Under the pieces are notes generated by a model. The model was not told the DNA's origin, searched no databases, and saw only the letters and a program-made list of their open reading frames with translations. This document shows, piece after piece, positions 17,857 to 28,954 of a stretch of DNA of 64,000 bases. The translations under genes were made by a program, and so were the position numbers. Within the stretch, counting starts at the first letter, position 1. Each line of letters starts with the position of its first letter. Origin of the DNA: Comamonadaceae bacterium OS-4 (GTDB taxonomy: Bacteria > Pseudomonadota > Gammaproteobacteria > Burkholderiales > Burkholderiaceae_C); the NCBI GenBank assembly GCA_027924025.1, contig AP026970.1, forward strand, positions 3,184,501-3,248,500. The letters run 5' to 3'.

Positions 17857-17931
17857 TGGTGTCCCCACCAGGAATCGAACCTGGATCTGATTCTTAGGAG
17901 GAACCTGTTCTATCCATTGAACTACAGGGAC
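17857..17931 (-). tRNA. tRNA-Arg(CCU) carried by the element
   Basis: A complete cloverleaf of 72 nt plus an encoded CCA. Acceptor GTCCCTG pairs TGGGGAC, D-stem GTTC/GAAC, anticodon stem GGTTC/GAATC with loop CTCCTAA (anticodon CCU, reads AGG), variable AGAT, and T-stem CCAGG/CCTGG with TTCGATT loop. It differs from the host copy in the acceptor, anticodon and T stems, so it is not a duplicate of the disrupted gene. It lies on the opposite strand and presumably replaces the function lost when the host tRNA was split. Confidence 0.95.
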
Positions 17932-17947
17932 ACACGATCAGCCCGCT

Positions 17948-17977
17948 ACTGTAGCATGTGTGCGAGTCTTTAGACAA
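17948..17977 (-). promoter_or_regulatory. Putative promoter of the element tRNA-Arg
   Basis: On the minus strand TTGTCT (17977-17972), an 18-bp spacer and TACAGT (17953-17948) lie 16 bp before the tRNA 5' end. The region also holds the upstream sequence of the diverging gene at 17993. Confidence 0.55.
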
Positions 17978-17992
17978 GAAGTGATATACAAA

Positions 17993-18478
17993 ATGGTAAG
18001 TCAACAACTTATTGATAATTTGAAGGAAAAGACCAAAGGCAAGTTGTTGATGTCACCTGAACAACTGTCTGAAGTAATTCCACTTACTTCCAAGCAGCAA
18101 TCAAAGTTGCGAAAAGAAAACCGTTTTCCGATCCCCTTCAAGAACATTGGACGACTTGTTTACTACTCAGTTTATGACGTGGCTAACTTCCTTTTGAATG
18201 GTGAAACCACACCAACTAAAGAAGTTCCAGAAGAAGCGCCAGCACCACAGATCACCGTCAAGAAGAAGCCAACCAAGTCCACAGCACCAGTTCAGGACCT
18301 GTCCCATATCTTCATGCTCAGAGCCTTTGCAAAGTCTTTAGAAGAACGTGCAACTGCTATGCTTTCTTTGGCGGAGAACTTGAACAACTATGCCAATAAA
18401 AAAGAAATGTCTGATCGTTTTGAAACGAAATTTCCATCAAAAAACGAATCAATCCAAAAGAATGATGGAAAAATTTAA
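17993..18478 (+). CDS. Putative winged-helix DNA-binding protein (excisionase/AlpA-like)
   Basis: A 161-residue basic protein. Residues 20-65 (MSPEQLSEVIPLTSKQQSKL, then RFPIPFKNIGRLVYYSVYDV) resemble the small MerR/AlpA/excisionase winged helix, in which an arginine-rich recognition turn is followed by a tyrosine strand. A proline/lysine-rich linker and a helical C-terminus (residues 105-135) follow. Its place beside attL and the tRNA suggests a recombination directionality factor or regulator of the element, but this is inference. The GTG at 17960 is an alternative start that would overlap the tRNA promoter. Confidence 0.6.
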   Translation: MVSQQLIDNLKEKTKGKLLMSPEQLSEVIPLTSKQQSKLRKENRFPIPFKNIGRLVYYSVYDVANFLLNGETTPTKEVPEEAPAPQITVKKKPTKSTAPVQDLSHIFMLRAFAKSLEERATAMLSLAENLNNYANKKEMSDRFETKFPSKNESIQKNDGKI

Positions 18479-18503
18479 CCGATCTTAAGAGAAGCCAAAA
18501 AAT

Positions 18504-19688
18504 ATGGAATTTAGAATTTTAGACACATTTGCTGGAGCTGGAGGATTTAGCTTAGGCTTTCAACTGGCAGGTGCAAAATTAGTTGGTGCTATTGAAAGAG
18601 ATAGTTGGGCGACTGACACATTTAAGTTTAATCACCCCGATGCTGAAGTATTGAAAGCCGACATAACCGATCTCTCAGATCAGGAAATATTAGACCGATT
18701 TTCACCACTTAAACCAACAGTAATTCTTGGTGGTCCGCCATGCCAAGGATTTTCCATTTGCAATAAAAACAGTGGAGATCCCAAAGATCCCCGAAATTCT
18801 CTATTTGAGGAATTTATTAGAGTAGGCAGATTGCTAAAGCCAGAAGTTATGATCATGGAAAACGTTCCAAATCTGATCAAAGCGCGAACTGCTGAAAAAA
18901 AATTAGTTGTGGATATTATCGTATCTGAACTCGAAAGCCTTGGATACCATGCAAAATATAAAATCCTAGAAGCTACAGATTACGGAGTTCCACAAATTAG
19001 GCGGCGGCTTGTAGTGATAGCTACAAGGGTCAAAATTGACGATCCATTCCCTCAAAAGACACACTCTGTGATTAGAAATAATGACCTCTTTGAAAATCAA
19101 CTCCTTGCTTGTCCGACACTTTGGGACGCAATTTCTGATATGCCAGATATTGAAGCGCGAGAAGGTGGGGAAGAAATGGAATACATCTCCGATCCAAAAA
19201 ATGATTATCAAAGAAAGTTGAGGATAGATTCAAAATCAGTCTACAACCATAAGGCGATGAATCATTCAAAGCGCCTTGTAGAACGATTTTCCTCAATGGC
19301 GTGGGGTGATTCAACATCAGATGTACCGGATCACCTTAAGCCATTAAAACGAAACAGCACAGAAATATCTGAAAAAATCTATGACCAGAATAATCGTAGA
19401 ATGCACCCTGATAAACCTTGCCATACTATTGCTGCTTCATTTTACGCAAACTTTGTTCATCCGTATAAAAATCGGAATTTCACCGCTCGTGAAGGAGCAA
19501 GAATTCAATCTTTTCCCGATTGGTATGTATTCAAAGGAAAGCCAACAGTTGTTAGCCACAAACTACTCAACCGTGAAGGCCGTACCGAAGACACTCACTT
19601 ATGTCAATACAACCAAATTGGAAATGCAGTCCCGCCTCTAATGGCGAAAGCAATTGCACAGCACCTCATATCAATTCTCGGAGATTAG
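18504..19688 (+). CDS. DNA (cytosine-5)-methyltransferase of a type II R-M system
   Basis: A 394-residue C5 methyltransferase with all main motifs: motif I DTFAGAGGFS (7-16), motif IV GGPPCQGFS (76-84) with nucleophile Cys80, motif VI ENVPN (119-123), motif VIII QIRRR (164-168), and motif X GNAVPPLMA near the C-terminus. The variable region between VIII and IX (about residues 185-300) should determine the target sequence. It protects against the nuclease encoded immediately downstream. The nuclease starts 1 bp after this stop, so the pair is translationally coupled. Confidence 0.95.
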   Translation: MEFRILDTFAGAGGFSLGFQLAGAKLVGAIERDSWATDTFKFNHPDAEVLKADITDLSDQEILDRFSPLKPTVILGGPPCQGFSICNKNSGDPKDPRNSLFEEFIRVGRLLKPEVMIMENVPNLIKARTAEKKLVVDIIVSELESLGYHAKYKILEATDYGVPQIRRRLVVIATRVKIDDPFPQKTHSVIRNNDLFENQLLACPTLWDAISDMPDIEAREGGEEMEYISDPKNDYQRKLRIDSKSVYNHKAMNHSKRLVERFSSMAWGDSTSDVPDHLKPLKRNSTEISEKIYDQNNRRMHPDKPCHTIAASFYANFVHPYKNRNFTAREGARIQSFPDWYVFKGKPTVVSHKLLNREGRTEDTHLCQYNQIGNAVPPLMAKAIAQHLISILGD

Positions 19689-19689
19689 C

Positions 19690-20559
19690 ATGTTCGTTCA
19701 CGGCAATAATTTAGAACAAAAAGAGACTCATCAAACAAAATACAACGATAGAGAGTCGAAACAATTTCTATCTGAAATTCGCGCAAAGTATGACCAATGG
19801 AAATCTGCGAATGAAACTCTTAAGGGACCAACAAAAGAAATTGCAGAAAATGATCAAGAAACTCTCATAGAAAGAGTACGACTTTTAAATGAATATAAAG
19901 ACTTTCTAGATCAGCAACACTATGCTGAAAAATTTGATTCACGATCGAACTTGCATTCTTCTGTTTTGGAAGAGTTTATGTTCTATCTTTTTAGGGACCT
20001 GGTTTTCAGCATATCCGAAACGGCCCTCATTGGTAAATCACATTCATTTAAAGATTTATTCTTCAGAGCCACTTCATACAGCGCAATGGTAAAGTCACCA
20101 AATGCCCTAATTGAAAAGAAGGATCACGACTTTGCAATTGGAGCAAGTGTCAGAGCAACTATGCAATGCCAAGGCCAAGAACAAGCAGAAATTCATGATT
20201 GGGATATTCCTGCTGTTGCGATTGAGTGCAAAACATATCTAGATAAAACTATGCTGCAAGATGTATCAACCGCAGCAGATCAATTAAAGCAGAAAAATCC
20301 CAATGCGGTTTATATAGTTGTCGCAGAATGGCTAAAGCTAACTGAATCAGTAAATTTGAAAAAGTATAAAATAGATCAAATTTATGTTCTGAGGAAGCAG
20401 AAAAATACAGACCGAGAGTTCAGATATAGTCCAGACTATGTAAAGAATCCGATATATCCTGATGTATTAGAGCATTGCTTTAACTATGTCAGAGTATTCT
20501 TAACAGCGGACTGGGAAGGCGGGATTGCTCATGGACTTGAAAACGGTTATCTGATATAA
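19690..20559 (+). CDS. Type II restriction endonuclease, possibly Bpu10I-like
   Basis: A 289-residue protein paired with the cytosine methyltransferase. A PD-(D/E)xK-like core is visible: acidic residues around DHD (145-147), then IPAVAIECKTYLDKTM with the catalytic ECK at 179-181. The ECKTYLDKTML segment recalls the Bpu10I family of nucleases, but I cannot confirm this without a search. The N-terminal 90 residues are helical and charged. A bidirectional terminator follows immediately. Bpu10I-type enzymes normally act as heterodimers, and only one nuclease chain is seen here. Confidence 0.75.
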   Translation: MFVHGNNLEQKETHQTKYNDRESKQFLSEIRAKYDQWKSANETLKGPTKEIAENDQETLIERVRLLNEYKDFLDQQHYAEKFDSRSNLHSSVLEEFMFYLFRDLVFSISETALIGKSHSFKDLFFRATSYSAMVKSPNALIEKKDHDFAIGASVRATMQCQGQEQAEIHDWDIPAVAIECKTYLDKTMLQDVSTAADQLKQKNPNAVYIVVAEWLKLTESVNLKKYKIDQIYVLRKQKNTDREFRYSPDYVKNPIYPDVLEHCFNYVRVFLTADWEGGIAHGLENGYLI

Positions 20560-20589
20560 AAAAAGCCAGTCATAAAGACTGGCTTTTTT
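20559..20589. terminator. Bidirectional terminator after the first R-M pair
   Basis: Thirteen-bp stem AAAAAAGCCAGTC/GACTGGCTTTTTT with loop ATAAA. Runs of T exist in both directions, so it can end the endonuclease transcript on the plus strand and a putative small RNA on the minus strand. Confidence 0.92.
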
Positions 20590-20674
20590 ATTGTCGTTAG
20601 ATTCGGCACCACCCGGTTTCTAACAGCACACTTGACAATTAAGAAATTCTTATTAGAAGTGTACTACCACGAAC
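20559..20674 (-). ncRNA. Putative short minus-strand RNA
   Basis: A promoter with TTGACA and TATGAT 16 bp apart reads leftward, with a predicted start near 20674, and meets the terminator at 20559-20589. The product would be about 115 nt. It has no ORF and includes a hairpin GTTAGA...TCTAAC (20596-20624) with a C-rich loop helix. The 5' edge of the large structured region overlaps or abuts it. Expression is not shown, only predicted. Confidence 0.4.
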
Positions 20675-20680
20675 AAACTA

Positions 20681-20708
20681 ATCATATTAGATATTTTTTA
20701 ATTGTCAA
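20681..20708 (-). promoter_or_regulatory. Strong minus-strand sigma70-type promoter
   Basis: On the minus strand TTGACA (20708-20703), a 16-bp spacer and TATGAT (20686-20681). The TTGACAATTAA arm is also mirrored at 20632-20642 on the plus strand, making an 11-bp inverted repeat, so the site may be regulated or bidirectional. Confidence 0.55.
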
Positions 20709-20734
20709 TAACGCGAAACTGATTATTTGCTCTT

Positions 20735-21609
20735 GGTAAAACAAGGGCATTTTTTATGCCTGAATGAAAGATGGATTGATATGTTATATGTCACAAGGCA
20801 ACCATAAGACCTTGGAATCAGCATTCAATCAATCCAGGAAGAAGTTAGGAAAGTAGAGGATGCTTGTTCATGGTTGAATAATACAGCGACGAACAAATGC
20901 AGAACTTGAGCGATTTAGGCACTAAATAACAACCATGCGCCTATAACAACAAGCAGACTCCAAATCCTGAAAGTATTTAATCAGTCATTTGTGTGACGAA
21001 AATAGCATGGCTCATTAGAGTGTAGTAGTTTGGCAAAATTACAGCGATACGGCATAAGATAAGTCCGAATGCAACTGGCGAGAAGTTGCAACCACGCCAA
21101 ATGAAAGAGCCCAATAACACAAATGCCATTGTTTGCGAACAATGGAGTTTCTTTCAGACTACTGATGAGGAATTATTCATGCCGATTCCTCAAGGCAAGA
21201 AGTTGGGTTGTGCAAAGCAAAAGGTTAAGGCTTAGTTCATAGAAATATGGATGCCGTGGAGATCCTGCACACTGCTGTTAGATAAGCAGAAAACGACTAC
21301 GGTTTTAGTGAGTAGCTAACTACTTACTGGGGTCTTTTCAACTGAATGAAAAGAGACAAAAGCAAAACGATTTTATTCAAAATCGTAGGGTTAGGCTTTG
21401 TCTTTTTCTTTAGAAAAATACAAAGCTGTGTACCATCAATAACCAATAATTGATGAATAGTACATCAGCAAATTAGATTAACAACCATCAAATAAACACT
21501 AACTCGTTAGAGATTTACGATAGTAAATAAAAATCCTGCGGGAGAATTTATTACTTCGGATCTAACTTCCAACTCAAAAAAAACCAAGCACCCAACGGGT
21601 GCTTTTTTT
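20735..21609 (+). ncRNA. Candidate large ornate structured RNA, class unassigned
   Basis: An ORF-free stretch of about 870 nt with a dense set of helices. Examples: TGGATTGAT/ATCAATCCA (20772/20828) enclosing CAAGG/CCTTG; CATGGTTG/CAACCATG (20869/20930); ATTTAG/CTAAAT (20913); TGCAACT/AGTTGCA (21070/21084) whose loop GGCG can pair CGCC at 21095; CCATTGTT/AACAATGG (21126); GAGGAAT/ATTCCTC (21167/21185) whose loop TGCC can pair GGCA at 21194; AGTGAGTAG/CTACTTACT (21307); TCTTTTCA/TGAAAAGA (21333); ACGATTTT/AAAATCGT (21367) inside GACAAA/TTTGTC; CATCAAT/ATTGATG inside TGTAC/GTACA (21429-21464). A terminator closes the 3' end. No homology is asserted. Confidence 0.6.
21587..21609 (+). terminator. 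Terminator at the 3' end of the structured region
   Basis: AGCACCC/GGGTGCT stem with loop AAC followed by seven T on the plus strand. It has no protein gene upstream for 1 kb, which implies that an RNA made from this region is terminated here. Confidence 0.9.
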
Positions 21610-21640
21610 ATTTCTGATTAATTCGATATCAGATCAGCCT

Positions 21641-21667
21641 TTGACTTTTTATTATATTTTTTATAAT
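21641..21667 (+). promoter_or_regulatory. Putative promoter of the adenine methyltransferase gene
   Basis: TTGACT at 21641-21646, a short 15-bp spacer and a perfect TATAAT at 21662-21667, 30 bp before the ATG at 21698. Confidence 0.55.
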
Positions 21668-21697
21668 TAAAAAATAACAATAAAAATAAGGCGAAAT

Positions 21698-22684
21698 ATG
21701 TATTTATTAGAAAAAGGAAATTCATTTCAATCAAAACTAAGCTCAGACTTTTTAAACCTAATTTACCAAAGAAGAAATTCTGAATATCTTCCAAAAAAAT
21801 CCACAGAATTTAAACAGATAAATGAGTGCTTAGATAAATACTACACCAAGCATAACGTTGCAAAAGACTGTTATGAGCACCTAAAAATTGTCTTGCGAAA
21901 TATAGGTGTAGATCCAACAAATATTCTGTTCATAGAACCTTCTGCTGGCTCAGGAGCATTTATGAAGCAAATAGCTGAAGAGTGCATTGGTTTCGATATA
22001 GCTCCAGCCTCAGAAGAAATAATTAGAGCCGATTTTTTAAATCAAAATATTTTAGAGCACTTAACTGTTGGTCAGAGAAAGAAACCGATTGCATTTATAG
22101 GAAATCCGCCATTTGGCAAAAAATCCAGCCTAGCAATTGACTTTATCAACAAAGCTCTAGGGTATTCAAATTTAGTCGCATTCATCGTTCCAGTTCAATT
22201 CAGAAAATGGTCAGCGCAATCAAAAATCAGCAGAGACGCAAAGCTACTTTTTGATATGACATTGGCTGAAAATTCTTTTGAGCTAGTTGGAAAAGATTAT
22301 GACTTGAGATGCTGTTTTCAAGTTTGGGGGACTGGATTCGAAAATGAACCAGATATGAGAATCAAGGAAAAGCCAAGCACTTTCCATTTAGATTTTGAAA
22401 TATATCAATACAACAGAACTGAGCAAGCAGAGAAGTTTTTTGAATATGAATGGGACTTTGCTGTACCGAGACAAGGGTACCAAGATTACACGAAAAAGGT
22501 CTTTTCAAAAGATGAATGCGATAAGAAGCAGCAATGGATTTTTTTCAAAGCAAAAAACAAGAAGATTCTGAAGCGCCTCCTTGCACTAGATTTTGTCAAG
22601 CTTTCCAAGAAAAACATTGGCACTCCAGGTTTTGGGAAAGCCGACGTAGTTTTCGAATACATAGAAAAATATGAAAAACAATAA
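21698..22684 (+). CDS. N6-adenine DNA methyltransferase of a second R-M system
   Basis: A 328-residue amino-methyltransferase. Motif I (SAM binding) is FIEPSAGSGAFMKQI (78-92) and motif IV is NPPF (136-139), the order of gamma-type enzymes such as M.TaqI; NPPF indicates adenine N6 methylation. The C-terminal 150 residues, rich in aromatic and charged residues, would recognise the target. It is followed after 33 bp by a PD-(D/E)xK nuclease. It lies downstream of the large structured RNA region and has its own likely promoter. Confidence 0.9.
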   Translation: MYLLEKGNSFQSKLSSDFLNLIYQRRNSEYLPKKSTEFKQINECLDKYYTKHNVAKDCYEHLKIVLRNIGVDPTNILFIEPSAGSGAFMKQIAEECIGFDIAPASEEIIRADFLNQNILEHLTVGQRKKPIAFIGNPPFGKKSSLAIDFINKALGYSNLVAFIVPVQFRKWSAQSKISRDAKLLFDMTLAENSFELVGKDYDLRCCFQVWGTGFENEPDMRIKEKPSTFHLDFEIYQYNRTEQAEKFFEYEWDFAVPRQGYQDYTKKVFSKDECDKKQQWIFFKAKNKKILKRLLALDFVKLSKKNIGTPGFGKADVVFEYIEKYEKQ

Positions 22685-22717
22685 ACCTAAAAAAAACAAT
22701 AATAACAAAGGTAATTT

Positions 22718-23617
22718 ATGGCAAAGAGGATACAAAATGCCAGTGATTTAAACACTGGAATAGTGAGTTTTATTCAAGGAATAATTAAGATCGGCGCATC
22801 ATCAAAAGGGAATGCCTTTGATGAAACCGTTCGAAGTCTGTTGCTCAAAGAACTTAGCGGAGCAGTTCTTATTGATGACAAGCGATGGGGTTCAAAATCG
22901 TCCACTTCAATATTTAGAGAATATAGAAAAAGATCAATGACAAAGAATTTTGACTTCACTGATCTACAGCCCATCGTTGACAACACACAACCGTTAGATT
23001 TGATTATTGTGGATAAACCAAATGGGAGCCAAAACTGGCCTGATCTCTTGATTATCTACAATCAAATCGGATTGCCAATAGAAGTCAAATCCACCGAAAA
23101 TGATTCCATCGTGTGGAACAGTGGATTCCCTCGTTTTGATGGAATATATATCTTCAACTGCTACGGAAAAAGCACAACAACCTGCTTTCTTGGTCAGCAT
23201 GCAATAAATAAATTTGAGCTAGATGAGCTTAAAACATCCTCAAAAGAAGCAAGTCAGCATAATAAAAAATGCGGTGGTACTAGGTGGTCATATTATGTCA
23301 GAGATATGTATAACTCTAGTCAGTCATTCATTGAAAGCAAATCGCTACCAACTGAGCTGATCAAGCTTGGCAACGACATTAAAGAGGCTGAATCTAAGCT
23401 TAAATGTGGTTGCACTACAAGCGGGAAAAATCTAACTTTCAATCAAATAGAGGCATTGAAAGTATCTATTGAAGAGAAGACAGAAAAATTTATTGCGCTT
23501 GATAATGAGTTCAATAGGCAAAAACATCGCAGGGAAGAAATGGAAAGAGAAACAATTGAATTTATTCAAAAGTTACCTTGGACTACAAATCAAAATACAG
23601 ATTTTGATCCAGTCTAA
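22718..23617 (+). CDS. Type II restriction endonuclease of the second R-M system
   Basis: A 299-residue protein with a clear PD-(D/E)xK core: NWPDLLIIYNQIGLPIEVKS, with PD at 108-109 and ExK at 122-124. After the nuclease core come CGCTTSGKN and a long charged coiled coil (about residues 215-285), which may serve for dimerisation or target search. It pairs with the NPPF methyltransferase immediately upstream. I do not recognise the isoschizomer family. A terminator follows 14 bp after the stop. Confidence 0.8.
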   Translation: MAKRIQNASDLNTGIVSFIQGIIKIGASSKGNAFDETVRSLLLKELSGAVLIDDKRWGSKSSTSIFREYRKRSMTKNFDFTDLQPIVDNTQPLDLIIVDKPNGSQNWPDLLIIYNQIGLPIEVKSTENDSIVWNSGFPRFDGIYIFNCYGKSTTTCFLGQHAINKFELDELKTSSKEASQHNKKCGGTRWSYYVRDMYNSSQSFIESKSLPTELIKLGNDIKEAESKLKCGCTTSGKNLTFNQIEALKVSIEEKTEKFIALDNEFNRQKHRREEMERETIEFIQKLPWTTNQNTDFDPV

Positions 23618-23631
23618 ACAAATACATTAAG

Positions 23632-23653
23632 AGCACCATAAGGTGCTTTTTTT
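23632..23653 (+). terminator. Terminator after the second R-M pair
   Basis: AGCACC/GGTGCT stem with ATAA loop and seven T. Confidence 0.88.
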
Positions 23654-23862
23654 ACGACCTAACGTGAGAGGTTAGGACCTCACGTGCCACTGCATGTACC
23701 TTCTTCACTGACAAGCGTACAGTTCGTTCTATTGGTTGGCGACACAAAGAAGTCAATCAAATAAAGCGATCAACTGTAGCGACTACCCACTTTATACCTA
23801 CCAGTGAAATAATTCACTTGGAAAGGAGGGATTAAATATGACTTAAATTAAAGGAAATTATC
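23654..23862. other. Intergenic segment with a compact predicted pseudoknot
   Basis: Within this 209-bp gap, CCTAAC (23658-23663) pairs GTTAGG (23671-23676), while the loop GTGAG (23664-23668) pairs CTCAC (23679-23683), an H-type pseudoknot. The extended arm ACGTGAG/CTCACGT is an alternative hairpin. The rest holds the leader of the 111-residue protein, with GGAAAGGAGGGA at 23820-23831. Confidence 0.4.
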
Positions 23863-24198
23863 ATGAACCAACTTAATCTTATCGCAGTCCCTAACGGCTT
23901 TTATACTCTTGAAGAAGCTCTTCAAGATCCAACAATCAAACAAGCTGCTCAAATGCTTAAACCCCTTGAAGGCACTACAACAGGAAAAATCAAAGCTTTT
24001 CTAACCGTTTATCAAATGATTGATGCTTTGGACCAAATGCGCCAACAAGGCATGGATTTGAACCAATTGAACCGCGAAGTTTTTAAGGACTCAATGGCAG
24101 CGACTGTTCATCTTAGCTATGACTTAATCATGAAGTCTTTCACCAACCAAGAGCGCAAAATGCTTCAAGAGTTGGTTGCGAAAGCTCCTGCTCACTAA
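23863..24198 (+). CDS. Hypothetical 111-residue helical protein
   Basis: An acidic-to-neutral soluble protein predicted to be all helical, with no cysteines and no membrane segment. The middle (KIKAFLTVYQMIDALDQMRQ) is strongly amphipathic. I recognise no family. It has its own ribosome binding site (AAAGGAAATT) and terminator, so it is an independent unit between the second R-M pair and the Xre regulator. An accessory role in the element is possible but unsupported. Confidence 0.65.
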   Translation: MNQLNLIAVPNGFYTLEEALQDPTIKQAAQMLKPLEGTTTGKIKAFLTVYQMIDALDQMRQQGMDLNQLNREVFKDSMAATVHLSYDLIMKSFTNQERKMLQELVAKAPAH

Positions 24199-24220
24199 GT
24201 TTCAGCAGCACCAAAAACAA

Positions 24221-24245
24221 AGGTTCCAATTTGGAGCCTTTTTTG
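24221..24245 (+). terminator. Terminator after the 111-residue protein
   Basis: AGGTTCCA/TGGAGCCT stem (one G-T pair) with a 3-nt loop and a T run. Confidence 0.85.
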
Positions 24246-24261
24246 TTGATCTCTGCGCCTA

Positions 24262-24293
24262 TGTCAGTCAAAATCATAGGAATTTAACTGACA
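24262..24293. promoter_or_regulatory. Inverted repeat upstream of the Xre regulator
   Basis: TGTCAGT (24262-24268) and ACTGACA (24287-24293) form a perfect 7-bp inverted repeat separated by 18 bp, directly before the start at 24303. The size and position suit an autoregulatory operator for the Xre protein. Confidence 0.5.
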
Positions 24294-24302
24294 ACACTAC
24301 AC

Positions 24303-24668
24303 ATGGCAAAGTCACCCAAAGACATACAACGATTGCAGGTAATCGGTAAGAGCTTGCAGAAGCTGCGACTTAAGTCAGGTTATTCTCAAGAGGAAGTTTC
24401 AGAACGTCTCGATATCACATCCAAATCATATGGTGAATATGAACGTGGTGACTCCACTCTTAACATCCTTAGATTGATTCAGATTGCTGAAATCTTTGAA
24501 TGTGAACTTGATGAACTTCTAGTTGGAATCAGTTCAAAACCTGATGACCAAGCAAAACATATTTCCGGCCTTCTACAAGGAGTTAAACGAGCCGATAGAC
24601 TCCACATTGTCAGAATTGTGGAGAAAATTTGTCTAATTTCAAAAGGCAAATCAAAAATAGACTCCTAA
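24303..24668 (+). CDS. Xre-family HTH transcriptional regulator
   Basis: A 121-residue regulator with an N-terminal Cro/C1-type helix-turn-helix (about residues 16-70: LQKLRLKSGYSQEEVSERL and then SKSYGEYERGDSTLNILRL). The C-terminal 50 residues are helical and basic and may mediate dimerisation. It could be the element repressor or the control protein of one R-M system; it is about 0.7 kb downstream of the nearest nuclease gene, which is unusual for a C protein. An inverted repeat lies just upstream. Confidence 0.85.
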   Translation: MAKSPKDIQRLQVIGKSLQKLRLKSGYSQEEVSERLDITSKSYGEYERGDSTLNILRLIQIAEIFECELDELLVGISSKPDDQAKHISGLLQGVKRADRLHIVRIVEKICLISKGKSKIDS

Positions 24669-24995
24669 CAGGTGTCATTTTTCTGGGCAGCTTGGTTGCA
24701 GAATAGTGCCCACGTCAATCAAAAGTGCATTAGTTAATCGCTAAAGCAACCAGCCTCATATTAATTCTAGCAAATAGAATTTTTGAAGCAATAGAACAGA
24801 AGCACTCAATTGAGTACTTTTCTTATTGATCAATTTTTTGAACTTCATACGATCCCTGCGGGAGCACCTGCTTCATTTATGCGTTGCAAAATAAAGCAGG
24901 TCGATGAAATTCACTCTTACAACTGGCGCACGTAGTGGGAACGCTCCGCCGTTCTTCCAATATGTGAGGCCGGGGCCGGCACCAGCCAAGTGCGT
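24669..24995. other. Noncoding region with inverted repeats
   Basis: This 327-bp stretch has no ORF. It has an imperfect hairpin around AAGCACTCAATTGAGTACTT (24799-24818) and the 8-bp inverted repeat ACCTGCTT/AAGCAGGT (24866-24873 and 24894-24901). At 24930-24990 there is a GC-rich patch that contrasts with the AT-rich element, with GAACG/CGTTC. It lies downstream of both flanking genes' 3' ends. Its function is unknown. Confidence 0.4.
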
Positions 24996-25202
24996 TTAGT
25001 CAAAGCCATTTACATCAACAGCACCGGGAAGAAGTCTATTTTTTCTCACGATTGATTCAAGGATCATTTTCAGTTCTTGAATCTTTTGAGCATCATTTCC
25101 AATAGTAAAAGCTTGAACCAAGTCCCTCAAGTCTGCGACTGAAACACTCAATTCATCAATTGAAGTGAGTCGGCTTTTGTCATAGTTGAACTCAACTTTC
25201 AT
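24996..25202 (-). CDS. Small protein, second gene of a coupled pair near oriT
   Basis: A 68-residue acidic protein starting MKVEFNYDKSRLTSIDELSV. The ATG at 25202 is preceded by GGAAGT and overlaps the 3' end of the upstream gene by 11 bp, which indicates translational coupling. I recognise no family. It has no cysteines or membrane segment. As it is paired with a likely DNA-binding protein divergent from the mob genes, an accessory mobilisation or regulatory role is plausible but not shown. Confidence 0.6.
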   Translation of the reverse strand: MKVEFNYDKSRLTSIDELSVSVADLRDLVQAFTIGNDAQKIQELKMILESIVRKNRLLPGAVDVNGFD

Positions 25203-25503
25203 TTTTACTTCCAACCATTTTTGAAACATATTTTGATTTTTGGATCAGTGTTTCCTTGATCAATTGCTCTAGATTAGTTCCATTTTTAATTGCATATTCT
25301 TCAAGAGCCTTGCAGTTTTCTTCACCAATGAACTTGAAGTAGGCAGCGGCGCGAGCCTGTTTTTTCTTCTGAACATATTCACTCACTGCATTTCTAACTA
25401 CCATGCCGAAGTTATCTGACTGCCCCGCATTGATTAAATAATCATCAATCCACTCAGCATCTTCGTTGCGAATAAATGCAGTTTTTTTCTTGCAACCCTT
25501 CAT
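25192..25503 (-). CDS. Putative ribbon-helix-helix-like protein near oriT
   Basis: A 103-residue basic protein. The N-terminal portion (KKTAFIRNEDAEWIDDYL followed by GMVVRNAVSEYVQKKK) looks like a ribbon-helix-helix DNA-binding domain, as in small relaxosome accessory proteins and plasmid repressors. The ATG at 25503 has a perfect AGGAGG upstream. It is divergent from the MobC-like gene, and the oriT lies between them, so it may bind there. Function is inferred from position and fold only. Confidence 0.55.
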   Translation of the reverse strand: MKGCKKKTAFIRNEDAEWIDDYLINAGQSDNFGMVVRNAVSEYVQKKKQARAAAYFKFIGEENCKALEEYAIKNGTNLEQLIKETLIQKSKYVSKMVGSKNES

Positions 25504-25648
25504 AAAATTCCTCCTGTTTTTATGAAGCATATGAAATCATATAGATAAAACAAGACCCATTCCGAAAATGTCAGCTATCGAGTTTTTTCATAATCGTGGA
25601 CATTACTTTTTAATTTCGTAAAATTAAGAGTACAGAACAGCAAGACAA

Positions 25649-25722
25649 ATAAACCATACCGTCGCTTAACCCCTTACGGGCTTAACCAACGTGGTTTATC
25701 TCTTGTTAGGGCGTTGCCCTAA
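25649..25722. other. Putative origin of transfer (oriT)
   Basis: Between the divergent genes lies an 8-bp inverted repeat ATAAACCA/TGGTTTAT (25649-25656 and 25692-25699). It encloses two CTTAAC boxes (25665-25670 and 25681-25686), the second as GGGCTTAACC. This resembles the ColE1 nick region CTGG/CTTA, cut by the MbeA relaxase family. A perfect hairpin TTAGGGC-GTT-GCCCTAA (25706-25722) follows. The likely nick is at the GG/CT junction (25680/25681). Confidence 0.65.
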
Positions 25723-25763
25723 GACCCTAAAAATGCTTAAAACAAAAATAAAAAGGAGAGCAT

Positions 25764-26189
25764 ATGAGCAAAGAATTAGAACCAAAATTGCACCCAGGAA
25801 GACATGGAAATGCTGATGATCATTTATACAAACGCACTCACTCATTAGACATTCGTTTGTCTCCAGTTGAGTTCATAGCATTGAAAGAGTCATGGAATAA
25901 AACTCAATTTAATTCAATGGCTTCTTATGTTCGCAATACCATCTTCAAAGGAAATGAAAAGAAGATTGACTTCTACTTTGAAGAAAAGCAGCAAGATCGC
26001 ATCCTTGCAGGAAAGTATTTAGCGGAGCTAAATAAACAAGGAAAAAATTTGAATCAGATCGCAAAGCAGCTAAGTTTAAAAACAGATTTTACAAAACAAG
26101 AGACAAAATTACTTGTAGACGATCTGAAAAATACACTGCTTGCCATTCAAGAAATCAAAGATAAATTTTCTGTACAGAAGAAAATTTAA
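25764..26189 (+). CDS. MobC-like relaxosome accessory protein
   Basis: A 141-residue protein of the MobC type. IRLSPVEFIALKE (about residues 30-42) and the C-terminal LAELNKQGKNLNQIAKQLS are the usual features of relaxosome DNA-binding proteins. It assists the relaxase in opening the nick site. It sits directly after the oriT and 11 bp before the relaxase gene, as mbeC/mbeA in ColE1-type plasmids. The ribosome binding site is AAAAGGAGAG before the ATG at 25764. Confidence 0.8.
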   Translation: MSKELEPKLHPGRHGNADDHLYKRTHSLDIRLSPVEFIALKESWNKTQFNSMASYVRNTIFKGNEKKIDFYFEEKQQDRILAGKYLAELNKQGKNLNQIAKQLSLKTDFTKQETKLLVDDLKNTLLAIQEIKDKFSVQKKI

Positions 26190-26200
26190 GGCTTGGTTTT

Positions 26201-27562
26201 GTGATTAATGCCGTTCAAGGCCATCGCACGAATTCAGTTCAAGAAGCGATTAACTATCTTAAAGGCGACCACGATCATAAAGGCGTGGAGAGAAATCCTA
26301 AGCCTAGATTTTTCACCGGAAGTGAAAATGATTGTCTTATTGCTTGTGAAAGCATAGATAGAAAACAGAAGTATGTTACTGGAACCTTGGCCTTTGAACC
26401 AAATGAACGACCAAGTGATAAAGAGCTTATGGAAGTAGTTAAATCATTCCGCGCCACCTTCATGGCCGGCCTTGAACATGGCGTAAATTTCACAGACTTT
26501 TGGAATATCCATGAAGATAAAAATCGTATTGAGTTGAATTACGTCATCCCATTGACTGAATTAACCACTGGCAGGCAAATAAATCCGTTTCCACCTGGCA
26601 AAGCAAAAGAAGATTTTAAGGACGCATTTGATGCAACCTGGAATCACATTCTTGGTTTTGACCAAGTTGTCAGAGATCCACTCAAAGCATCTTCTTCAAA
26701 ATTTGAAACCAAGGTTTTGCCACATTCAGATTCAGCACTTGCCAAGCAAATTAAAGTTAGCAAACCAGATAAGGACAACATAAGCGCCAATGTTGCCTAT
26801 CAGATTCATCAAGGAAAAATTAACAGCAGGCAGCAGCTATGTGATTACCTAGAAAACTTTGGTGAAATCACCAGAGTGAACGATAAGTTCATCTCACTAA
26901 AAATTCACGGATCACAAAAAGCTTTTCGTTTAAAAGGTCCAGTTTATGAACATGGCGCCGATTTTCAGAAGTTGAAAATTGAGTCTGCTACTAAGGATGC
27001 TCCATACAGAAGGCAGCTTAATGATGCTGATTTTCAAAAGGTGCAATCAACTCTTGCACGATTGACTAAATCAAGAAAGTCTTTTAATCAGAAGCTGATT
27101 GCCACTCCCATGACTGGAAGAAGCAACAGAAACCGTTTGTATGGTGCCAAGGCAATTCCTAAGCAGTCTGCACCAGTCAAAGAAGTTCAGCAGACACCAC
27201 AGAGGGCCCCTACACAGGTTCAAGCGCCATTGACCAGCACCGCACCTAAGCAAGTTCCTGAAATCGCTCAGAAGCAGCCTACAGCCGGTAAACCAGCAAT
27301 GATGGATTCACAAACTAAAGAAAGTGGTTCTTCTGGACCAACTTCAATGGGTAGTAGTTCAGATTCTTCTATTGGAAATCTTCAAGCTCAATTGTCTGAT
27401 TTGAGAAATCAAATTGCTAATGCCAAAGATCCAGCTAAGGCCGCATCTTTGAAAATTAGAGCTATGAAACTTGAACAGCAGATTGGCGCAGCAGTAGAAG
27501 CTGATCGCATTAGAAAACTCAAAGAATCAGAACGATTCAGTGGCATCAAGAAAAAATACTGA
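26201..27562 (+). CDS. MbeA-like HEN relaxase (MOBP5/MOBHEN type)
   Basis: A 453-residue relaxase starting with GTG. The catalytic Tyr19 sits in INYLKG as in ColE1 MbeA. The HEN signature in place of the usual three-His motif is seen as H104, E111 and N113 in IHEDKNRIELNYVIP. SRQQLCDYLENFGEITRV (residues 200-225) matches the next conserved block of MbeA. The C-terminus is a low-complexity Pro/Gln/Ser-rich linker (about residues 305-395) and a coiled coil. It nicks oriT and leads the strand into a recipient using another element's secretion system. Confidence 0.88.
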   Translation: MINAVQGHRTNSVQEAINYLKGDHDHKGVERNPKPRFFTGSENDCLIACESIDRKQKYVTGTLAFEPNERPSDKELMEVVKSFRATFMAGLEHGVNFTDFWNIHEDKNRIELNYVIPLTELTTGRQINPFPPGKAKEDFKDAFDATWNHILGFDQVVRDPLKASSSKFETKVLPHSDSALAKQIKVSKPDKDNISANVAYQIHQGKINSRQQLCDYLENFGEITRVNDKFISLKIHGSQKAFRLKGPVYEHGADFQKLKIESATKDAPYRRQLNDADFQKVQSTLARLTKSRKSFNQKLIATPMTGRSNRNRLYGAKAIPKQSAPVKEVQQTPQRAPTQVQAPLTSTAPKQVPEIAQKQPTAGKPAMMDSQTKESGSSGPTSMGSSSDSSIGNLQAQLSDLRNQIANAKDPAKAASLKIRAMKLEQQIGAAVEADRIRKLKESERFSGIKKKY

Positions 27563-27575
27563 ATACTTGGCCAAC

Positions 27576-27600
27576 AAAAAGGCACCCGAAGGTGCTTTTT
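27576..27600. terminator. Bidirectional terminator between relaxase and integrase
   Basis: GCACC/GGTGC stem with CGAA loop, flanked by AAAAA and TTTTT, so it can serve both converging genes. Confidence 0.85.
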
Positions 27601-27624
27601 ACTCTCAGTTTAATTCATATGAAT

Positions 27625-28782
27625 TTAACTAGCTTTGGCCCAAAGTTTTGCGCCAATGTCACTATGCCTTAAAGTGGCATATCGTTTCAAAGTTCCCAAT
27701 TCAATATGGCCTGAAATTTTACTAATTTCAATGTCAGTCAAGTTTGTGTTCACAAAATACCAGCTAACAGCACAATGCCTTAAATCGTGAATTTTGAAGT
27801 TTGTAACTTTGGCATTTTTGCAGATGACTTTGAACCGAGCAGCAAGAACAGAACTACTTTTCCAATAGTCACCAAACACCAACGATTGACTATCCTTCTT
27901 CAACTTCATAAGCCTGTCTTTAATGAAGTGGTAGAACTCTGGCCTTAGTGGAACTTTCCGATCTTCGGCATTCTTTTTATCAGCAATTTTTGTGTTCTCT
28001 TTGGGAACAAAAATGTATGAATGACTTGGATTTTTTTCATCCAAATGAATTTCATCCCACTTGATAAGGAGACTTTCACCAGCACGCATACAAGAATAGT
28101 ATTGCCAAAGAATGAGACACCGCAATTCTTCGCGCTTCACATACATTTTTTCTGTAGCAGCCAGCAAGCTATCTAATTCACCAGCTTCAAGAATCCGATC
28201 CCGTGGAATCCAAGCTTTGGGAGGCGAATTCTCATCAAATGGCTTACGGTCAAACGTGTAATCATGGTGTTTGGCGTGCCACGCCAATGAGGTTTTGATA
28301 GCGTAATAAAGCTTCCTGATGGTGCTTTCGCTGTAGGTCTTTTTGACCATCTCACCAGTTTTCACATCCAAAATTTTATGACCAGCATAAAGCGGACTAG
28401 CTTTCTTTTTAGTCGCTTGATCTGGAACCTTTTGTTCCAATTTGGTTTTCAGGTAAAGAGCAAACGTTCCAGATTTGAAATTTCCAAGAGGAACCTTTCC
28501 AATCTCCAACTTCAATTTTTCAAGGTCATACCGTTTGCCATCGGCAACAGTGTTGTGCTTTAAATATTCGGTGAAAATTTGAGCCAAAGTCAGCTTCTTG
28601 ATTTTGGTGATGTCTACCGACTCACCACGATCAATTTTTGACTTGACTTCACGAATGAATTTTTCAGCTTCTTTTTTTGTCTTGTAGGTCTTGCTTACAG
28701 CAACACCAGCTTCGCGCACACGCACCAAGAACGACACATCGCCATTGACGCCAACACGTTCAGTGATCAACTTCCCCGCCAT
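27625..28782 (-). CDS. int: Tyrosine recombinase (element integrase)
   Basis: A 385-residue phage-type integrase. The N-terminal part is an arm-binding AP2-like strand region, followed by a core-binding domain (LTLAQIFTEYLKHNT). The catalytic domain has Arg233 (CMRAGE), HxxR at H332-R335 (HDLRH), H359 (GHIELG) and nucleophile Tyr368 (LKRY). The ATG at 28782 has AAAGGAGTG upstream. It lies at the right end reading inward, with TTGGAAC boxes between its start and attR, the standard arrangement of an integrase with its arm sites. Its target is the anticodon loop of tRNA-Arg(CCU). Confidence 0.95.
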   Translation of the reverse strand: MAGKLITERVGVNGDVSFLVRVREAGVAVSKTYKTKKEAEKFIREVKSKIDRGESVDITKIKKLTLAQIFTEYLKHNTVADGKRYDLEKLKLEIGKVPLGNFKSGTFALYLKTKLEQKVPDQATKKKASPLYAGHKILDVKTGEMVKKTYSESTIRKLYYAIKTSLAWHAKHHDYTFDRKPFDENSPPKAWIPRDRILEAGELDSLLAATEKMYVKREELRCLILWQYYSCMRAGESLLIKWDEIHLDEKNPSHSYIFVPKENTKIADKKNAEDRKVPLRPEFYHFIKDRLMKLKKDSQSLVFGDYWKSSSVLAARFKVICKNAKVTNFKIHDLRHCAVSWYFVNTNLTDIEISKISGHIELGTLKRYATLRHSDIGAKLWAKAS

Positions 28783-28810
28783 CTTCACCACTCCTTTTAG
28801 AACGTCCAAG

Positions 28811-28836
28811 TTGGAACTTGGAACAAATTTGGAACA
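28811..28836 (+). repeat. Right arm-type repeats for the integrase
   Basis: Three TTGGAAC boxes at 28811, 28818 and 28829. The last two, 11 bp apart, match the left-end pair at 17761/17772 in sequence, spacing and orientation. Confidence 0.65.
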
Positions 28837-28908
28837 TTATGGCTAGAATAGCGTACATCATCACTGTAAGTGGTTGCTGTATAAAGAATTTTTCAACTTG
28901 TTAGTGTT

Positions 28909-28954
28909 CCCTCCTAAGGGGCAGATACAGGTTCGATTCCTGTCGGGGGCACCA
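28909..28954 (+). pseudogene. 3' half of host tRNA-Arg(CCU) (attR)
   Basis: CCCTCCTAAG (the attR core, 28909-28918) then GGGC closing the anticodon stem, AGAT, T-arm ACAGG-TTCGATT-CCTGT, acceptor CGGGGGC, discriminator A and encoded CCA. Joined to the left half this gives a normal tRNA-Arg(CCU) with a GCCCC/GGGGC anticodon stem. In the present state the preceding bases are element DNA and do not rebuild the 5' half. Confidence 0.93.

What the first reader, a model, noticed from the sequence alone, without database searches (positions are those of the whole stretch)
20735..21609. About 870 nt of ORF-free, densely helical sequence: candidate giant ornate RNA
The stretch between the two R-M systems lacks any ORF of 60 codons but holds at least 15 perfect or near-perfect helices of 6-9 bp with short loops, and ends in a terminator. 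Large ornate RNAs of the GOLLD and ROOL classes are known to occur in phages and mobile elements, often near tRNA genes. This element also carries a tRNA. No class assignment is made; it may be a new class.
Basis: partly seen in the sequence, partly recalled or inferred. Interest (0 to 1): 0.92.

Follow-up and report, generated by a model that had tools for sequence, protein, structure and literature searches.

The report
New large structured RNA on mobile elements
A gap without genes in a small mobile DNA element encodes a roughly 0.9-kilobase, intricately folded RNA that no family in the reference RNA library matches; relatives sit on similar elements in other bacteria, and one part of the RNA recurs as a separate small RNA on the same element.

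Summary
Window 20596-21553 is an ORF-less, conserved, structured RNA, probably on the + strand. Seven other full-length loci were found in betaproteobacterial integrative mobilizable elements (IMEs). Six share the window's RNA body; the seventh (VITREO) keeps leader and 3' end around an unrelated body. A decayed remnant is in Vogesella. On six members 38 of 218 consensus pairs show double compensatory changes and 94.4% of cells pair; slid controls give 2-12 pairs and 34-46%. No Rfam 15 family reaches its gathering score; plasmid and phage collections gave no match.

Beyond the finding: (1) a conserved opposing promoter should make a ~117-nt minus-strand sRNA with a hyperconserved hairpin (20674-20558); (2) a 68-nt domain of the large RNA (20870-20937) recurs as a separate predicted sRNA (24686-24755, minus) in 7 of 8 elements examined; (3) leader, body and backbone are exchanged independently.

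It is not GOLLD or ROOL by model, and the nearby tRNA marks the element's end. Expression is untested. Most likely a trans-acting element RNA whose shared domain docks the same partner as the small RNA (inferred).

The parts
20666..21609 (+). Large structured RNA; predicted transcript from about +1 at 20666 to the terminator. Conserved core 20596-21553 (leader included); body from 20750
   Evidence: Profile hit 20596-21551; 218 consensus pairs, 38 with double changes; z -6.7. Transcript ends are inferred
20632..20659 (+). Candidate promoter of the large RNA: TTGACA, 16 nt, TAGAAG. Weak second hexamer in the window
   Evidence: TTGACA is invariant in the 7 aligned members. The stricter promoter pattern is met on + in 4 of 9 loci, and the window's site is not listed by the consensus scan
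20681..20708 (-). Opposing sigma70-like promoter TTGACA, 16 nt, TATGAT, for the minus-strand sRNA1
   Evidence: 11 of 12 consensus positions; pattern found in 8 of 9 loci, Vogesella failing
20558..20674 (-). sRNA1: predicted ~117-nt RNA of three adjacent hairpins, the last being the terminator shared with the left cargo
   Evidence: A2: 140 of 140 cells paired, 3 pairs with double changes; z -4.5 to -6.3 in five members. The + strand of the window copy folds as well (z -6.6)
20596..20624 (.). Hyperconserved hairpin, middle hairpin of sRNA1; identical in 7 aligned members, absent in G747
20559..20589 (.). Terminator hairpin between left cargo and RNA unit, bidirectional by sequence
   Evidence: listed on +; the minus fold shows the same hairpin
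20728..20755 (+). Terminator-like (attenuator-like) hairpin plus T-run near the start of the large RNA
   Evidence: in G747 the hairpin arms differ in sequence but still pair
20870..20937 (+). Domain of the large RNA that recurs as the core of sRNA2
21586..21611 (+). Terminator hairpin with T-run downstream of the RNA
   Evidence: present in 3 of 8 members
24686..24755 (-). sRNA2: predicted small RNA whose core is homologous to 20870-20937
   Evidence: Present in 7 of 8 elements examined; model hit 69.4 bits
24764..24791 (-). Candidate promoter of sRNA2: TTGCTT, 16 nt, TAGAAT, preceded by TGC
   Evidence: Aligned upstream sequence in 7 elements; not listed by the consensus scan
18504..20559 (+). 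Left cargo: C5 cytosine methylase (18504-19688) and Bpu10I-like enzyme (19690-20559)
   Evidence: Pfam PF00145 and PF09549
21698..23617 (+). Right cargo: type II methyltransferase (21698-22684) and a 299-aa protein (22718-23617), restriction enzyme by position only
   Evidence: PADLOC 1.8e-54 for the first, none for the second; no Pfam family for either
17857..28954 (.). Carrier IME: tRNA-Arg(CCU), excisionase-like gene 17993, XRE 24303, NikA/MobC-like 25764, MbeA-like relaxase 26201-27562, integrase 27625-28809 (-)

Best explanation
The stretch encodes a new class of large structured non-coding RNA (about 850-950 nt, + strand), carried by a family of small integrative mobilizable elements between two variable cargo slots. 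Shown by comparison: selection on RNA structure, no conserved ORF, no match to a curated RNA family, an adjacent predicted minus-strand sRNA with a conserved opposing promoter, and a predicted small RNA elsewhere on the element that is homologous to one domain of the large RNA. Inferred: the RNA acts in trans as a folded scaffold or decoy rather than as a leader of a neighbouring gene; its shared domain docks the same unknown partner as sRNA2, so the two compete; the overlapping face-to-face promoters make the large RNA and sRNA1 alternatives. Confidence by step: real structured RNA gene of a new class 0.93; acts in trans 0.6; shares a partner with sRNA2 0.35. The number given is for class plus trans action.
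For: Homologues in several genera. 38 of 218 pairs with double changes, slid controls 2-12. Seven-member fold energy -154 vs -69 +/- 7 in 40 column shuffles. In the + fold 138 body cells are G-U and 10 A-C; in the - fold 55 are A-C and 21 G-U. No ORF conserved across members. No Rfam family. Leader function unlikely: a terminator follows in 3 of 8, and in D. caeni the next gene points the other way. The body is exchanged independently of backbone and leader. The domain shared with sRNA2 has 27 of 75 columns invariant in 12 sequences, with z 3.0-8.8 in six of seven same-element comparisons.
Against: No expression data. The + promoter of the window is weak and not found by the consensus scan. 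The strand is not settled by z-scores: the column-shuffle z is -12.3 on + and -13.7 on -, and in 2 of 8 members (D. caeni, VITREO) the body's - strand has the stronger z. In helices found on both strands without G-U, G-U and A-C cells are 14 and 8 only. The 38 double changes come from few lineages, so independent events are fewer. For the shared domain the consensus fold has 8 pairs and no double change. In B. lata and D. caeni the best of 300 shuffles equals or exceeds the observed score, and VITREO has sRNA2 without the domain in its own body. In 5 of 8 members no terminator was found, so read-through into a downstream gene is possible there.
Confidence: 0.58

Rival explanations
1. A ROOL/GOLLD-like RNA-only assembly: many copies form a homo-oligomeric particle, and the small RNAs only control its production.
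For: Similar length, dense structure, no ORF, mobile-element location. ROOL and GOLLD are reported to form such oligomers (PMC12286853, start of abstract and passages).
Against: No sequence or model relation. No covariation-supported loop-loop contact: one invariant 5-bp candidate only. Nothing here tests oligomers.
Confidence: 0.2
2. A cis-acting leader or attenuator that controls the right-hand cargo gene.
For: A terminator-like hairpin with T-run near the 5' end. In several members the RNA runs towards a same-strand gene without a detected terminator.
Against: A terminator follows in 3 of 8 members. In D. caeni the next gene is on the opposite strand. The downstream genes differ between members, and promoter-like sequences precede several of them (seen by eye).
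Confidence: 0.08
3. A DNA-level element: a recombination, cargo-exchange or transfer site whose hairpins act as single-stranded DNA.
For: Cargo on both sides differs in most members. The hyperconserved hairpin sits at the left cargo junction. Leader, body and backbone exchange independently.
Against: G-U cells outnumber A-C cells in the + fold of the body, and compensatory changes extend over long-range helices. The hairpin is absent in G747, whose body is 97% identical. The hairpin does not follow the order of attC boxes (recalled).
Confidence: 0.06
4. A plasmid-type replication preprimer with a control RNA (ColE1 RNAII/RNAI-like), kept from a plasmid ancestor; the relaxase is ColE1 MbeA-like.
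For: Relaxase matches the MbeA model, E 9.7e-22, below the curated cut-off; a large RNA next to an opposing ~117-nt RNA.
Against: The small RNA runs away from the large one and is not antisense to its body. No Rfam match. The body can be replaced wholesale (VITREO).
Confidence: 0.05
5. A decayed or unusual protein gene, not an RNA.
For: Short ORFs exist in each member.
Against: The ORFs differ between members; base-pair covariation is strong.
Confidence: 0.02

Closest known systems
GOLLD and ROOL RNAs
   Same: Hundreds of nucleotides, densely folded, without ORF, on mobile DNA; function unknown (PMC12286853 and PMC7567579, passages)
   Different: No Rfam match; carriers are IMEs, not phages or prophages; no tRNA array; has a stand-alone small RNA homologous to one domain
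OLE and HEARO large RNAs
   Same: Large structured bacterial RNAs (recalled)
   Different: No Rfam match
ICP1 phage ~800-nt ncRNA and PLE inter-inverted-repeat transcript
   Same: ORF-less gap of about 1 kb on a mobile element, likened to GOLLD/ROOL by the authors (PMC7567579, passages)
   Different: No blastn match in the phage collection with window or B. lata queries; whether ICP1 itself is in the collection was not checked. For PLE only the paper's passages were seen
ColE1 RNAII/RNAI
   Same: Large RNA with an opposing small RNA; MbeA-like relaxase on the element
   Different: The small RNA is not antisense to the large one; no Rfam match

Membership tests
GOLLD / ROOL / OLE / HEARO | Match to a curated Rfam covariance model | tested here: not met
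   Window at gathering score: only two tRNAs. Permissive scan of 20560-21700: best family for the stretch is an unrelated sRNA at E 0.022, below gathering. Five homologous loci: tRNAs and one sub-threshold sRNA hit. That these four families are in Rfam 15 is recalled
Large ornate bacterial RNA (kind) | More than 500 nt, ORF-less, densely paired with covariation | tested here: met
GOLLD / ROOL | Phage or prophage location, often near tRNA islands | tested here: not met
   IME with relaxase and integrase, single tRNA at its end; phage collection and viral contigs gave none or chance hits
GOLLD / ROOL | Homo-oligomeric RNA cage | not testable with these tools
   Needs biophysics
Integrative mobilizable element (carrier) | Integrase, relaxase, tRNA end, no transfer apparatus of its own | tested here: met
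   Integrase PF00589; relaxase by the MbeA model at 9.7e-22, below its cut-off, and Pfam Relaxase only 0.026. The absence of transfer-apparatus genes rests on the small gene list of the 11-kb island
Group II intron or known ribozyme | Match to Rfam intron or ribozyme models | tested here: not met
ColE1-type preprimer | Antisense RNAI complementary to the 5' part of the large RNA | tested here: not met
   The minus RNA starts at about 20674 and runs leftward, overlapping only the first few predicted bases of the + transcript

The most novel reading that the evidence does not exclude
The locus is a modular platform for giant RNAs. A constant leader (opposing promoters, sRNA1, attenuator) and a constant 3' end bracket interchangeable large-RNA bodies, as in VITREO. 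The element also makes a miniature of one body domain (sRNA2) that competes for the same partner, so that the element runs an RNA control circuit whose working part is a giant RNA.
Probability: 0.3. Interest if true: 0.9.

Novelty: new variant of a known kind. Interest (0 to 1): 0.78.

Why it matters
Few classes of giant structured bacterial RNA are known, and the passages read say that the roles of GOLLD and ROOL are unknown. This one offers handles: a defined carrier, natural swaps of leader and body against each other, and a stand-alone small RNA homologous to one domain. The question of what a giant mobile-element RNA binds becomes testable with a roughly 70-nt bait.

Tried and rejected
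Rejected: a hidden protein (no ORF conserved across members; no 60-codon ORF). A known RNA family (sRNA2 alone). Six of the nine genomes matched (G018, G045, G155, G237, G305, G368) by short stretches: none of their loci is hit by the profile at E <= 1. Chance pattern hits: viral contig L018 in a coding region, L036 and L037 in coding-like DNA without further similarity, L021 and L026 in Rhodobacteraceae, L049 of G599. Pairing of the sRNA1 hairpin with the large RNA was considered and dropped: G747 keeps the body without that hairpin and VITREO keeps the hairpin with another body. Conserved loop-loop contacts: one invariant 5-bp candidate, no covariation. Elements with relaxases 32-38% identical in G328, G018 and G194 show no RNA by profile; for G194 only 15 kb at a contig start was read. 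Andreprevotia, relaxase 38%, does have the RNA, so relaxase kinship does not decide it. The covariation energy printed has an unclear sign and was not used. Direct repeats of the element ends were sought and none of 12 nt or more was found for the window.

Literature: five searches of open-licence papers; no report of this RNA was seen in the listings. PMC7567579 and PMC12286853 were read as passages only. Absence from print is not established.

Full report
OBSERVATION. The stretch between the two restriction-modification operons has no ORF of 60 codons and folds far better than chance: -243.5 vs -196.5 +/- 7.0 kcal/mol, z -6.7, 20 shuffles. Of 111 overlapping 200-nt windows along the element, the lowest z on either strand is -7.9, on + at 21300. 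A few windows in coding DNA also reach about -5 (for example 19200 and 23500, + strand). The stretch lies in an AT-rich island of about 11 kb in a GC-rich chromosome.

CARRIER. The island is an integrative mobilizable element. At one end is tRNA-Arg(CCU) (17857-17931), then an excisionase-like gene (phrog_66, 1e-6); at the other end is an integrase (PF00589). Between them are an XRE regulator and a NikA/MobC-like protein and a relaxase. The relaxase matches the MbeA model at 9.7e-22, below its curated cut-off; Pfam Relaxase gives only 0.026. Left cargo: C5 methylase and Bpu10I-like enzyme. Right cargo: a type II methyltransferase (PADLOC) and a 299-aa protein without a family above cut-off.

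RELATIVES. blastn against 399 family genomes gave 9 with a match at E <= 0.01: three real (own, Diaphorobacter caeni, a MAG called VITREO here) and six short chance hits. A scan of the species-genome collection with the 19-base core of the 5' hairpin gave 9 stretches. Six are full relatives (D. caeni, VITREO, Andreprevotia chitinilytica, Acidovorax soli, Burkholderia lata, Deefgea salmonis), one is a decayed remnant (Vogesella margarita) and two are chance. An order sample of 399 gave 5 with a match: own, Andreprevotia, G747 (new), the Vogesella remnant and one chance hit. A class sample of 266 gave only the window's own genome. Plasmids and phages gave no match; viral contigs gave chance hits or none. 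Deefgea and Andreprevotia are Neisseriales and D. caeni Burkholderiales in NCBI taxonomy. The collection scan used one exact pattern, so members with a changed or missing hairpin, such as G747, are missed.

STRUCTURE AND STRAND. On six members (A1, 1034 columns) RNAalifold gives 218 pairs: 94.4% of 1295 cells paired, 38 pairs with a double change. 0 of 500 shuffles reach either value; the number of further pair types is not above the shuffles (323 of 500 reach it). Slid controls give 34-46% and 2-12 pairs. With G747 added, the fold energy is -154 vs -69.4 +/- 6.9 on + and -128 vs -64.4 +/- 4.6 on - (40 column shuffles each; z -12.3 and -13.7). The structure is therefore beyond doubt, while z does not choose the strand. 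The energy and the wobble counts favour +: the + fold holds 138 G-U and 10 A-C body cells, the - fold 55 A-C and 21 G-U. In helices found on both strands with G-U forbidden, G-U and A-C are 14 and 8. Single bodies: z -3.2 to -5.6 on + and -2.4 to -4.8 on - in 8 members; the + strand has the stronger z in 6 of 8. No ORF is shared by all members.

LEADER AND SECOND RNA. Two sigma70-like promoters face each other upstream of the body. The minus one matches 11 of 12 consensus positions in the window, and the pattern is met in 8 of 9 loci. The plus pattern is met in 4 of 9, and not in the window, where the second hexamer is TAGAAG. The predicted minus RNA (20674-20558) folds into adjacent hairpins in five members (z -4.5 to -6.3), but the + strand of the same stretch does too (z -6.6). 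On six members 140 of 140 cells pair and three pairs have a double change; 6 of 500 shuffles reach this. One pair is U-G in five sequences and A-U in one; U-G on minus would be A-C on plus, which favours minus. The middle hairpin is identical in seven aligned members. G747 lacks it and has a different leader, yet keeps opposing promoters and a hairpin with T-run (read by eye; minus pattern).

THIRD RNA, COPY OF A DOMAIN. Profile searches hit a second place in four elements (E 0.0016 to 0.037). It is a 70-78-nt sequence on the opposite strand, with an aligned promoter-like sequence upstream, in 7 of 8 elements examined and not in Andreprevotia, whose backbone differs. Aligned with the large-RNA domain, 27 of 75 columns are invariant in 12 sequences. 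The consensus fold finds 8 pairs and no double change, so the homology rests on sequence. Against the same element's large RNA the local score exceeds 300 shuffles by z 3.0 to 8.8 in six of seven elements. In B. lata and D. caeni the best shuffle equals or exceeds the score. VITREO shows nothing with its own body, but z 11.5 and 11.0 with those of A. soli and Andreprevotia. A model built from the 12 finds 14 strong hits in 13 sources; 12 are training sequences, and the two untrained (L042 sRNA2 65.7 bits, L050 large RNA 73.9 bits) fit the same places. The next best scores 18.5 bits. In 10 whole genomes, six have two copies, VITREO and Andreprevotia one, G328 and G018 none; at most 150 first-look candidates per genome were scored.

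EVOLUTION. The parts move separately. B. lata and VITREO: relaxase 91%, body 50% (no homology detected in the middle), leader 81%. B. lata and Andreprevotia: relaxase 36%, body 76%. Window and G747: relaxase 97%, body 97%, leader 57%. Relaxase searches: in the order sample 3 of 399 match at E <= 1e-60 and all 3 have the RNA. In the family sample 6 of 399 match at E <= 1e-40; three above 60% identity have the locus and three at 32-38% show none. Cargo differs in most members; Deefgea and VITREO share one restriction-modification pair (84-87%). It includes restriction-modification, a DarT1-associated NADAR protein, a bile-acid-symporter-family protein and small proteins without known family.

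MECHANISM. Shown: conservation, structure, position, modular exchange, shared domain. Inferred: transcription from the stated promoters, mutual exclusion of the two, action in trans, and a common partner for the domain and sRNA2. A cis leader is unlikely because a terminator follows in 3 of 8 members and in D. caeni the next gene points the other way. A replication preprimer is unlikely because the small RNA is not antisense to the large one.

COMPARISON. It resembles GOLLD and ROOL (long, folded, ORF-less, on mobile DNA; PMC12286853 and PMC7567579, passages). It is not a member by model. I class it as a new class within the known kind 'large ornate bacterial RNA'. A stand-alone small RNA homologous to one domain is, as far as I recall, not reported for the others.

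Noticed in passing
window 24686-24755 (-): Small predicted RNA behind the XRE gene, on the opposite strand, whose core is homologous to a domain of the large RNA.
   Followed up: yes
window 20596-20624: Hairpin identical in seven aligned members across genera, absent in G747; reason for the extreme conservation unknown.
   Followed up: partly
L019 5440-6129: VITREO carries an unrelated structured body (z -3.2 on +, -3.7 on -) between the conserved leader and 3' end; no blastn match in plasmids or phages.
   Followed up: partly
window 28910-28954 and 17857-17931: The right end of the element holds a stretch like the 3' half of a tRNA-Arg gene, inverted relative to the tRNA-Arg(CCU) at the left end; Deefgea shows the same. 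Unusual for direct-repeat attachment sites.
   Followed up: no
L044 9468-12326: Vogesella remnant: tRNA-Arg, a methylase-like gene and a 290-aa gene, then only the first ~200 nt of the RNA unit.
   Followed up: partly
L039 10321-11613: D. caeni carries a DarT1-associated NADAR protein (PF22397, 3.9e-88) and a 187-aa protein without family in the left cargo slot.
   Followed up: no
window 20728-20755: Terminator-like hairpin just inside the predicted large RNA; followed by a sequence that can pair alternatively (GGGCAT/ATGCCC), suggesting attenuation.
   Followed up: partly
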